Source: Nodosilinea sp. E11 (GTDB lineage Bacteria; Cyanobacteriota; Cyanobacteriia; Phormidesmidales; Phormidesmidaceae). From it: a stretch of 64,000 bases of DNA. Below, in pieces: positions 44,735 through 47,235 of this stretch; position 1 is the first letter of the stretch, and every line of letters begins with the position of its first letter. The notes beneath the pieces are model-generated. The model worked only from the letters and a program-made list of their open reading frames with translations. It did not search any database and was not told where the DNA came from. Made by a program: the position numbers and the translations under genes. The DNA lies in contig NZ_CP136520.1 of the NCBI RefSeq assembly GCF_032813545.1, positions 2,226,001 to 2,290,000 on the forward strand. Reading direction: 5' to 3'.

Positions 44735-46183
44735 ATGACCCTGGCCCAAGCTCAACCCAACGCTTCTGCCCTCGAATTTGACTGCGACACCGGCAACTAC
44801 CACACCTTTTGCCCAATCAGCTGTGTGGCGTGGCTGTACCAAAAGATTGAAGACAGCTTTTTCTTAGTCATTGGCACCAAGACCTGCGGCTACTTTTTGC
44901 AAAATGCCATGGGGGTGATGATTTTCGCCGAACCCCGCTACGCCATGGCCGAGCTGGAAGAGGCTGATATCTCGGCTCAGCTCAACGATTATGAGGAGCT
45001 GAAAAGACTGTGTGAGAGCATTAAGCGCGATCGCAACCCCTCCGTGATCGTTTGGATTGGCACCTGCACCACCGAGATCATCAAAATGGATCTCGAAGGG
45101 TTGGCCCCCCGCCTAGAAGCCGAAATCGGCATCCCCATCGTTGTCGCCCGCGCCAACGGCCTTGACTACGCCTTTACCCAGGGTGAAGACACCGTACTGG
45201 CGGCCATGGCCCAACGCTGCCCCACCGAGGAAGAAGCCGCCGCTAAGCAGCCTGCTGCCGCCAAGGTAGAACCTAAAGAAGAAGCTAAGTCCGGCGGCAT
45301 TCAAAAGCTGCTCGGCCTGGGCCGCAAAAAAGAAGAAGAGGCCGTAGTTGTCGCAGACACCCCTTACCACGATCACCCACCCCTGGTGCTGTTTGGCTCG
45401 GTGCCCGACCCCATCGTCACCCAAATGACCCTGGAACTGAAAAAGCAGGGCATCAAGGTCTCCGGCTGGCTGCCCGCCAAGCTCTACACCGACCTGCCCA
45501 CCGTTGATGAAGGCTACTACGTCGCCGGTATCAACCCCTTCCTCTCTCGCACCGCTACCACGCTGATGCGCCGCCGCAAGTGCAAGCTGATCGGTGCCCC
45601 CTTCCCCATTGGCCCCGATGGCACCCGCGCCTGGATTGAGAAAATCTGCTCGGTGTTTAACATTGAACCCCAGGGCATGGAGGAGCGCGAAGCTAAAATC
45701 TGGGAGTCGGTAGAAGACTACCTGGAGATCATTCGCGGTAAGTCGGTCTACTTCATGGGCGACAACCTGCTGGAGATCTCCCTAGCCCGCTTTCTCACCC
45801 GCTGCGGCATGACGGTGCAAGAAATCGGCATCCCTTACATGGATAAGCGCTACCAGGCGGCGGAGCTGGCTCTGCTAGAGAAAACCTGCAACGAAATGGG
45901 CACGCCGCTGCCCAAAATCACCGAGAAGCCCGACAACTACAACCAGATCCAGCGCATTCAAGAGTTGCACCCTGACCTGGTGATCACTGGTATGGCCCAC
46001 GCCAATCCGCTGGAGGCGCGCGGCATCAACACCAAGTGGTCGGTGGAGTTTACCTTTGCCCAAATCCACGGCTTTGGCAACACCCGCGACATTCTAGAGC
46101 TGGTGACGCGACCCCTCCGCCGCAACAACAACCTCAAAGACCTGGGTTGGGAGAAACTGGTGAAAGAAGAAGCGAAGGTGTAG
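44735..46183 (+). CDS. chlN: Light-independent protochlorophyllide reductase subunit N
   Basis: A 482-residue NifD-like subunit. Cluster-ligating cysteines are seen in [20 protein letters not shown] and in [16 protein letters not shown]. Further marks are [19 protein letters not shown] and [21 protein letters not shown] charged Ala/Lys/Glu-rich insert of about 45 residues (centred near residue 190) interrupts the usual core. With ChlB it forms the catalytic heterotetramer that reduces protochlorophyllide in the dark. The last 134 bp (46050-46183) are repeated at 47036-47169 beyond a RAYT gene. No terminator of the usual type directly follows; a REP hairpin pair does. Confidence 0.95.
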
Positions 46184-46192
46184 GTAGTCCCC

Positions 46193-46287
46193 AGATCCCA
46201 GGGTTCTTAAAGAACCCTGGGATCTTCTCGCGGCAAGCATTTTGCCCGCAGCCAGATCCCAGGTTTTTTGGAAAACCCTGGGATCTT
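46193..46287. repeat. REP hairpin pair (REPIN-like), left of RAYT
   Basis: Two hairpins of the type GATCCCAGGGTTCT / AGAACCCTGGGATC (46194-46224) and GATCCCAGG-TTTT / AAAACCCTGGGATC (46255-46285). They are separated by a spacer with GCAAGCATTTTGCCCGCAG. The first stem is 14 bp and perfect. The pair recurs with the same order and spacer at 46932-47025. The second hairpin ends in TTTTT and might also terminate chlN transcription. Confidence 0.85.
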
Positions 46288-46352
46288 TTTGTGCCAAGCA
46301 TTTTGCTGGCGCTAGGGAACTCTAGAAGCGGATCTTCTCAGCTTGATCAGCT

Positions 46353-46925
46353 ATGCCGCGCCGCAAAGTAGCCTTTTTGCCAGGGCACTACTACCACCTA
46401 TACAACCGGGGCAACAATCACCAGACCATCTTCTTTGAGCGTGAGAACTACCTATTCTTTCTGCGGCAGTTTCGGCAGCATGTGGCAGTAGAAACCGCTG
46501 ATGTTCTGGCCTATTGCCTGATGCCAAACCACTACCATTTCTTGGTTTATCTACGAGGTGAAGATCTATCGGAGAAGATGGGGCGGCTTTCGCTGTCATA
46601 TACGAAGGCGATCAACAAGCGATGTCAGCGCTCTGGGGTCTTGTTTCAGGGGCCATTTCAGTCGATCCATGTAGATGCGGAGGCGTATCTGCTCAATCTG
46701 TCTCGGTACATCCATCTGAATCCGGTGAAGGCTGGGCTGGTGCAGAGACCGGAGGATTGGGAGTTCTCTAGCTATCAGGAGTATGTTGAACTGCGTCGGG
46801 GAACGCTGCCCCAATATCGAGCGTTGCAACAGCAGGTGGGTGGTTTAACAGCGTATCAAGCCTTTGTGGAATCTGAAGCTGTTTTGATACCGATGGCGAT
46901 CCGAAGCCTGATGCTGGATGAATAA
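46353..46925 (+). CDS. REP-associated tyrosine transposase (RAYT, Y1 HUH family)
   Basis: A 190-residue IS200-like HUH protein: HYYHLYNRGNN at the start, the HUH-type metal motif in CLMPNHYHFLVYL (H-Y-H), a catalytic-tyrosine helix LSLSYTKAINKR and LSRYIHLNPVKAGLV. Length and flanking REP hairpins fit a single-copy RAYT rather than an IS200 with paired ends. RAYTs cut and join REP DNA as single strands and are linked to spread of REPINs. It lies between two REP pairs directly after chlN. Confidence 0.9.
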   Translation: MPRRKVAFLPGHYYHLYNRGNNHQTIFFERENYLFFLRQFRQHVAVETADVLAYCLMPNHYHFLVYLRGEDLSEKMGRLSLSYTKAINKRCQRSGVLFQGPFQSIHVDAEAYLLNLSRYIHLNPVKAGLVQRPEDWEFSSYQEYVELRRGTLPQYRALQQQVGGLTAYQAFVESEAVLIPMAIRSLMLDE

Positions 46926-46931
46926 CGCCCC

Positions 46932-47025
46932 AGATCCCAGGGTTCTTTAAGAACCCTGGGATCTTTCCCCAGCAAGCATTTCACCCGCAGCCAGATCCCA
47001 GGGTTTTTGAAAAACCCTGGGATCT
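46932..47025. repeat. REP hairpin pair (REPIN-like), right of RAYT
   Basis: GATCCCAGGGTTCTT / AAGAACCCTGGGATC (46933-46963) and GATCCCAGGGTTTTT / AAAAACCCTGGGATC (46994-47024), joined by a spacer with AGCAAGCATTTCACCCGCAG. It is a direct repeat of the left pair with few changes, so the RAYT sits between two copies in the same orientation. It begins 7 bp after the RAYT stop. Confidence 0.85.
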
Positions 47026-47035
47026 CTTTCTCCGC

Positions 47036-47169
47036 TTACCTTTGCTCAAATCCACGGCTTCGGCAACACCCGCGACATTCTAGAGCTGGTGACGCGACCC
47101 CTCCGCCGCAACAACAACCTCAAAGACCTCGGCTGGGAGAAACTGGTGAAAGAAGAAGCGAAAGTGTAG
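47036..47169 (+). pseudogene. Duplicate of the last 134 bp of chlN
   Basis: Aligned without gaps to 46050-46183, including the stop codon. I count five differences, all third-position and all synonymous, so both encode the identical 42-residue end ([15 protein letters not shown]... to KEEAKV). It has no start and is not expressed as a protein on its own. The hairpin terminator directly after it suggests that this is the resident chlN end. Confidence 0.9.
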
Positions 47170-47187
47170 GTCAAAGGTAAGACTGGA

Positions 47188-47235
47188 GGCCTTCTTCGAG
47201 AAGGCCGGGTTTCTTCGAGAAGCCCGGCTTCTTTG
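47188..47235 (+). terminator. Double-hairpin terminator, probably native to chlN
   Basis: GGCCTTC/GAAGGCC (47188-47206) overlaps a second stem GCCGGGTTTCT/AGAAGCCCGGC (47204-47228, one G-T pair), followed by TTCTTTG. It lies 18 bp after the stop of the duplicated chlN tail. Confidence 0.75.

What the first reader, a model, noticed from the sequence alone, without database searches (positions are those of the whole stretch)
46050..47235. chlN tail duplicated around a RAYT/REPIN cassette, with only synonymous differences
The last 134 bp of chlN (46050-46183) recur intact at 47036-47169, with a REP pair, RAYT gene and second REP pair between. I count five differences, all third-position and synonymous. 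A non-coding duplicate drifting in place should accumulate changes at all codon positions. The simplest reading is that the two tails evolved as working chlN genes in different lineages and were then joined by recombination. The double-hairpin terminator sits only behind the downstream copy, so that copy is probably the resident end, and the incoming piece was a donor chlN (or its 3' part) with its RAYT. This would be RAYT spread by homologous capture of a conserved neighbour gene rather than by transposition.
Basis: partly seen in the sequence, partly recalled or inferred. Interest (0 to 1): 0.87.

Follow-up and report, generated by a model that had tools for sequence, protein, structure and literature searches.

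The report
Transposase gene swapped in with chlN's end
In a group of related cyanobacteria, a domesticated transposase gene appears to move between species by swapping the end of the neighbouring chlorophyll gene chlN, and in the genome studied here the old end of chlN still lies downstream as a 134-base scar.

Summary
In detail: the last 134 bp of chlN recur 986 bp downstream, beyond a REP pair, a RAYT gene and a second REP pair, with five differences, all synonymous. Relatives show it is real and recurrent. Of 24 same-genus genomes with chlN (window included), six carry this RAYT beside chlN and six carry a second chlN tail. In G020 chlN runs straight into the terminator and DUF4160 gene that follow the window's downstream tail, so that tail is the resident end. 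RAYT does travel with chlN's 3' end: in a distant species (G013) it is far too similar to the other clade's (4-fold divergence 0.155 against about 0.50 for core genes), and chlN switches clade inside this very tail. G015 probably did the same with another cassette. Best explanation: import anchored by homology in chlN on one side, an illegitimate joint on the other, the resident tail left as a scar. RAYT transfer by homologous recombination had been suggested in print but thought rare. New variant of a known process.

The parts
44735..46183 (+). chlN, the working gene; its last 134 bp are tail 1
   Evidence: NF002768 661 bits; PF00148
46050..46183 (+). tail 1: the 3' end of the working chlN, thought to have come in with the RAYT cassette at least in part
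   Evidence: 96.3% to tail 2 and to the same region of RAYT-bearing G016
46193..46286 (.). REP pair 1 (33-nt palindromes 46193-46225 and 46254-46286); the first is a strong hairpin 9 nt after the chlN stop and may end chlN transcription
   Evidence: RNA fold of 46180-46240 -30.7 kcal/mol, z -5.6
46353..46925 (+). RAYT, REP-associated tyrosine transposase, intact ORF of 190 aa
   Evidence: NF047646 83.1 bits; PF01797; solved TnpA-REP 4er8, E 4e-4
46932..47025 (.). REP pair 2 (46932-46964 and 46993-47025)
47026..47035 (.). ten-base filler at the illegitimate joint between REP pair 2 and chlN; nine of its ten bases are the same in species G012
47036..47169 (+). tail 2: displaced resident 3' end of chlN, no longer part of a gene
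   Evidence: followed by downstream sequence that lies directly after chlN in G020
47188..47230 (+). native chlN double-hairpin terminator, now stranded behind tail 2
   Evidence: a closely similar hairpin lies directly after chlN in G020 and G001
47264..47747 (+). resident downstream genes DUF4160 and DUF2442; window 47199-47743 is 92% alike behind chlN in the empty-site genome G020
   Evidence: Pfam

Best explanation
The cassette arrived by homologous recombination that started in chlN. An incoming stretch of DNA from a related species carried the end of its chlN followed by REP-RAYT-REP. It paired with the resident chlN, so the working gene now ends in the cassette. The resident tail, with its terminator and DUF4160/DUF2442 genes, was left downstream as a scar. 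The scar then decays as non-coding DNA; in this genome it is still almost identical to the working tail, probably through occasional gene conversion between the two repeats. Shown: the structure, the empty site, the recurrence, horizontal movement of RAYT, and a chlN breakpoint in G013. Inferred: the one-sided mechanism at this exact locus, the direction of transfer, and the gene conversion.
For: Empty site: G020 chlN runs directly into the terminator and DUF4160 block that follows tail 2. This RAYT is beside chlN in 6 of 24 same-genus genomes with chlN; the other RAYT-like matches listed for the genus are 68% identical or less in protein. G013 belongs to a distant clade with G001 (support 1.0), yet its RAYT is 92.8% identical to G023's; 4-fold-site divergence 13/84 against 286/568 for three core genes, P 7e-10. 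In G013's chlN the diagnostic sites 1341-1359 are own-clade (5 of 5) and 1365-1440 are other-clade (8 of 8), so the switch lies inside the duplicated tail; P of such an end run 0.01. The three perfect REP palindromes of G013 all lie at this locus, as for a recent arrival. Species topology is rejected for RAYT (AU 1.7e-35). The window's RAYT and G023's are also somewhat closer than their core genes (P 0.009). Tail1/tail2 differences are synonymous in 59 of 77 cases over five genomes (50 of 66 without G012, which shares the window's junction). RAYT-bearing genomes have more similar chlN 3' ends than their core genes predict (+3.55 points at nt 1366-1449, P 0.003). Same process with other cargo: in G015 a cassette is 94.4% identical to G010's (core 87.1%, P 2e-7), chlN's last 150 bp jump to 97.3% with G010, and the cassette is cut and joined into the resident chlN at nt 1094.
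Against: For the window genome no donor is identified, and its two tails are each other's nearest relatives (support 81). RAYT divergence between G000 and G016 is not lower than core divergence (P 0.27), so the window's RAYT could be inherited. REP palindromes of this kind are frequent in some genomes that lack this RAYT (13 in G002), so RAYT may have been older and lost in places. The RAYT-linked similarity of chlN is not confined to the 3' end (nt 1-150 P 0.047, 1051-1200 P 0.003, whole 1-1200 P 0.015; 13 windows, uncorrected). chlN is mosaic throughout the genus, so a breakpoint near the end is less striking. The AU test does not reject trees that place G013's RAYT at the base (P 0.118 and 0.102). 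In G015 only three diagnostic sites lie in the last 150 bp, two of them G010-like. G013 is an incomplete genome (83%, 490 contigs).
Confidence: 0.62

Rival explanations
1. Local template switching during replication or repair: the chlN end was copied twice within one genome, with the RAYT cassette copied in between, and no foreign chlN was involved. The later synonymous differences came from ordinary recombination of the working gene with other strains.
For: It happens at this very place: in G025 chlN breaks off, 235 bp follow that are identical to a place 7 kb upstream on the same contig, and chlN resumes 292 bp back with identical copies. In the window genome the two tails share A at nt 1422, seen otherwise only in G018, and group together.
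Against: Without later recombination about 46% of tail differences should be synonymous; 59 of 77 are (P 3e-8), and in G016 and G012 the two tails are not each other's nearest relatives. It does not explain RAYT crossing clades into G013 or the G010-like cassette in G015.
Confidence: 0.2
2. Single-crossover (Campbell) integration: a donor fragment closed into a circle through the ligation joint and inserted whole by one crossover in the chlN tail. Both tails would then be hybrids of donor and resident.
For: Gives exactly tail-cassette-joint-tail-native end; integration of re-circularised linear DNA by single crossover is known from E. coli (abstract of PMC3240628).
Against: In G015, the imported case with the longest scar, tail 2 is own-clade-like at 9 of 12 diagnostic sites and mostly so in its 5' part, where this model wants donor sequence. 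Repeat length differs among events (134, 136, 148, 356 bp), so no one circle is spreading.
Confidence: 0.1
3. Transposition of the RAYT/REPIN unit to the end of chlN with a 134-bp target duplication.
For: The cassette carries an intact Y1 transposase and begins a few bases after the chlN stop.
Against: Single-strand Y1 transposition is not known to make target duplications (recalled); duplication lengths vary; the same RAYT sits behind chlN without an adjacent second tail in G023, G013 and G025; RAYTs are said not to copy themselves (passages of PMC8049555).
Confidence: 0.04
4. Assembly artefact or contamination.
For: Several relatives are fragmented genomes.
Against: The window lies on a 5.46-Mb contig and G012 shows the same arrangement and nearly the same junction on a 480-kb contig.
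Confidence: 0.03

Closest known systems
Homology-facilitated illegitimate recombination (HFIR), as in natural transformation of Acinetobacter, Pseudomonas stutzeri and Streptococcus (cited in PMC5361080) and in E. coli conjugation (abstract of PMC3240628)
   Same: One end of incoming DNA joined by homology, the other illegitimately; at G015 the joint has about 2 bp of microhomology by my reading
   Different: Here inferred from genome comparison in cyanobacteria, with a joint inside the homologous gene so that its end is duplicated
Displacement of effector or toxin modules: Vibrio cholerae T6SS immunity arrays (passages of PMC5361080) and Rhs C-terminal displacement (cited there)
   Same: Conserved upstream part as anchor, new module inserted behind it, old 3' part shifted downstream as an orphan
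   Different: The anchor is a housekeeping gene whose protein hardly changes, and the cargo is a RAYT or a small cassette; the orphan is dead and decays
RAYT/REPIN systems of Pseudomonas and relatives
   Same: RAYT gene between REP palindromes, with REPs scattered through the genome
   Different: RAYTs are described as vertically inherited, with passive homologous transfer possible but probably at a low rate (passages of PMC8049555); here such transfer is seen between clades
Genomic islands in tRNA or other gene ends with a duplicated attachment site (recalled)
   Same: Gene end restored and repeated on the far side
   Different: No integrase recognised here and no fixed repeat length (134-356 bp)

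Membership tests
RAYT (REP-associated tyrosine transposase) | Matches the curated RAYT family model | tested here: met
   NF047646 83.1 bits, cut-off 80
RAYT (REP-associated tyrosine transposase) | Gene flanked by REP palindromes | tested here: met
   two palindromes on each side
RAYT (REP-associated tyrosine transposase) | Related REPs scattered in the genome | tested here: met
   14 perfect palindromes in G000, reversed-pattern control 0
RAYT (REP-associated tyrosine transposase) | Cleaves REP DNA through HUH motif and tyrosine | not testable with these tools
   an NHYHF stretch is in the sequence (meaning of the motif recalled); no assay
Homology-facilitated illegitimate recombination | Homologous crossover in the anchor gene at one end | tested here: inconclusive
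   supported in G013 and probable in G015; window genome unresolved
Homology-facilitated illegitimate recombination | Non-homologous joint, often with a few bases of microhomology, at the other end | tested here: inconclusive
   joint present; microhomology readable only in G015, because donor sequence beyond the window's joint is unknown
Homology-facilitated illegitimate recombination | Depends on RecA and DNA uptake | not testable with these tools
   no experiment
Transposition with target-site duplication | Fixed short duplication and movement to unrelated sites | tested here: not met
   duplications 134-356 bp; the six members of this RAYT family found in the genus, window included, all sit behind chlN (in G016 inferred across a contig break)
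Integrase-type island with duplicated attachment site | Integrase gene and constant repeat | tested here: not met
   apart from the RAYT no ORF over 82 aa lies wholly between the tails; repeat length varies

The most novel reading that the evidence does not exclude
The cassette uses the chlN tail as a homology-based docking site: the host's own recombination inserts and removes it without ever breaking chlN. Recombination between the two tails would drop out the 986-bp unit and restore chlN with its native terminator, and because the tails differ only synonymously every crossover gives the same protein. RAYT would then spread as a reversible passenger of a conserved gene end, not as a vertically inherited domesticated gene.
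Probability: 0.12. Interest if true: 0.75.

Novelty: new variant of a known kind. Interest (0 to 1): 0.58.

Why it matters
RAYTs are mostly described as vertically inherited domesticated transposases; horizontal transfer has been inferred for a few (passages of PMC3686654) and homologous transfer suggested but thought rare (passages of PMC8049555). Here one RAYT family crosses clades together with the end of the gene beside it, which gives a concrete route. The tail scars mark and orient such swaps, so the process becomes countable in sequence data. It also shows that displacement, known mainly from toxin loci, happens at the end of a chlorophyll gene and with more than one kind of cargo.

Tried and rejected
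Plasmid or phage vehicle: no match to 45900-47250 in plasmids or phages, and no relative of the RAYT in viral contigs.

General RAYT habit: of 88 other RAYT loci given (some are one place under two ids), 77 were tested; the only same-orientation gene-tail repeat that I recognised was in L278, which looks like the template and variable repeats of a diversity-generating retroelement. The other hits look like repeat arrays but were not each inspected.

Transposition with target duplication and an integrase-type island: rejected for lack of a fixed repeat and of an integrase. Campbell insertion: disfavoured by the G015 tail.

A tree of the 134-bp tails alone: most nodes have support below 70, so it settles little. 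The short inverted repeat around tail 2 (I14) was set aside: its right half is native sequence also present in G020.

Paper listings seen but not opened: apart from the papers named in the report.

Full report
What is there. The last 134 bp of chlN (46050-46183) recur at 47036-47169 with five differences, all third-position and synonymous. Between them lie two REP palindromes, a RAYT gene (46353-46925; NF047646 above its cut-off) and two more REPs. Tail 2 is followed by a double-hairpin terminator and genes for DUF4160 and DUF2442. The last 484 bp of chlN match only the gene and tail 2 in the genome. The window is part of a 5.46-Mb contig of G000.

The organisms. This is an inference from length.

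How common it is. Of 26 genomes of the genus, 24 have chlN (G003 gave only a spurious 25-bp match and G024 none). Six of the 24 carry this RAYT directly behind chlN: G000, G012, G013, G016, G023 and G025. Six carry a second chlN tail: G000 (134 bp), G012 (136), G016 (148), G015 (356), G023 (104, on another contig) and G025 (a local copy). In G016 chlN and RAYT are on two contigs that both end in what looks like one inserted element; their adjacency is inferred.

Which tail is resident. In G020 chlN is followed at once by nearly the same sequence as tail 2 in the window (GCCAAAGGTAAGACTAGAAGCC against GTCAAAGGTAAGACTGGAGGCC), then terminator and DUF4160 block, 92% alike over window 47199-47743. 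In G001 chlN is followed by the terminator and flank that follow tail 2 in G016. The RAYT-bearing chlN genes have instead a REP hairpin within about 12 nt of the stop, which may serve as terminator (inference).

RAYT moves between species. The species tree (ffh, purH, sdhA) puts G013 with G001 in a distant clade with support 1.0. G013's RAYT is 92.8% identical to G023's, while core genes are 77-83% identical (sdhA over 550 nt only). At 4-fold sites the divergence is 0.155 (13 of 84) against 0.44-0.52 in core genes (P 7e-10). The species topology is rejected for the RAYT alignment (AU 1.7e-35), although two trees that place G013 at the base are not (P 0.118 and 0.102). G012 and G025 also share a RAYT younger than their core genes (P 6e-5), and G012 and G000 carry RAYT versions older than their core divergence (P 0.005). 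Three of three perfect REPs found in G013 (83% complete) lie at this locus. On the other side, some genomes without this RAYT hold many such REPs (13 in G002, 7 in G003), so RAYT was probably once present there and lost (inference).

It moves with the end of chlN. In G013's chlN, sites that distinguish the two clades read own-clade at 1341-1359 (5 of 5) and other-clade at 1365-1440 (8 of 8). The switch falls at window position about 46094-46098, inside the duplicated tail. chlN of G013 is mosaic further upstream too, so the end run alone has P 0.01. Over 23 genomes, RAYT-bearing genomes have chlN ends more alike than core genes predict (nt 1366-1449, +3.55 points, P 0.003), but nt 1-150, nt 1051-1200 and nt 1-1200 as a whole also show an excess (P 0.047, 0.003 and 0.015; 13 windows, uncorrected).

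A second cargo. In G015 the working chlN runs into a terminator and a cassette that reads like a toxin-antitoxin pair (named from its sequence, no family search run). It is 94.4% identical to G010's and 84-86% to three others; core identity of G015 and G010 is 87.1% (P 2e-7). The last 150 bp of chlN jump to 97.3% with G010, although only three diagnostic sites lie there, two of them G010-like. The cassette's second gene is cut off and joined to a 356-bp resident chlN tail with a stop codon. By my reading the joint has about 2 bp of microhomology.

Two outcomes. Where RAYT sits behind chlN without an adjacent second tail (G013, G023, G025), it is followed by a stretch R that is also found downstream of chlN in G002, G006, G010, G014 and G019, which lack this RAYT. 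R also occurs away from chlN in G007 and G009. R was not found in G000, G012 or G016, the three genomes with tail 2 behind RAYT. This fits clean exchange where both sides match, and a scar where only chlN matches. With three against three genomes it is a hint only.

The synonymous argument. Four of the five sites vary between the same two states in working chlN genes of other species; only nt 1326 is peculiar to displaced tails. Over five genomes 59 of 77 tail differences are synonymous; about 46% would be expected if a local duplicate drifted beside a working gene (P 3e-8; 3e-4 if the synonymous share of mutations is as high as 0.4; 7e-7 without G012). So most differences probably arose in working genes. 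In G012, G015 and G023 the displaced tail also carries stop codons or amino-acid changes, and G016's carries one amino-acid change, as expected of dead DNA.

Why the window's scar looks fresh. G000 and G012 share the junction almost letter for letter, so that event is old or was itself exchanged. Yet G000's tails are only five changes apart and share A at nt 1422, found otherwise only in G018, and they group together (support 81). Gene conversion between the two repeats is the likeliest reason (inference). It also hides where tail 1 came from, so for this genome the donor is not shown.

A local rival. In G025 chlN is broken: after residue about 429 it runs into 235 bp identical to a place 7 kb upstream, then resumes 292 bp back with identical sequence. 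Template switching thus happens at this place, and it leaves identical copies and own-genome filler, unlike the other cases.

In print. Displacement by a process akin to homology-facilitated illegitimate recombination is proposed for Vibrio T6SS arrays and, as cited there, Rhs loci (passages of PMC5361080). RAYTs are called vertically inherited, with passive homologous transfer possible but probably at a low rate (passages of PMC8049555). Horizontal transfer is thought likely for isolated occurrences of some RAYTs in pseudomonads (passages of PMC3686654). A search for chlN with RAYT found no paper; searches for RAYT with horizontal transfer or homologous recombination listed 8 and 3 papers, of which I read passages of two. 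I saw no case like this, within that library.

Noticed in passing
L278:2471-5952 (Iningainema tapete contig): A RAYT lies between what look like the accessory (avd) and reverse-transcriptase genes of a diversity-generating retroelement, whose template and variable repeats showed up as a 125-bp direct repeat (gene names from reading the sequence).
   Followed up: partly
L039:900-2100 (G025): chlN of G025 has lost its own C-terminus: a 235-bp exact match to sequence 7 kb upstream (reads like scpB) is followed by a second, identical chlN 3' part.
   Followed up: yes
L190 and L191 (G012, G000): A second, different RAYT is almost identical between G000 and G012 (branch lengths 0.005 and 0.003) although core genes are 89% identical, which suggests a very recent transfer.
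   Followed up: no
window 46184-48536 and the same zone in relatives: The stretch behind chlN, in many genomes up to an HTH gene, is a variable zone of small cassettes whose gene content differs among most of the 20 genomes compared.
   Followed up: partly
L046:2640-2770 (G023 contig C232): An orphan 104-bp chlN tail with native terminator and DUF4160/DUF2442-like genes lies on a different contig from chlN; how the locus split is unexplained.
   Followed up: partly
L012/L040 (G012), tail 2 downstream: In G012 tail 2 is followed by what looks like half a decayed REP instead of the native terminator, so its history includes a further event.
   Followed up: no
L028 (G006), downstream of chlN: A single REP palindrome with its usual flank follows chlN in a deep-branching genome without RAYT there, perhaps a trace of a lost RAYT.
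   Followed up: no
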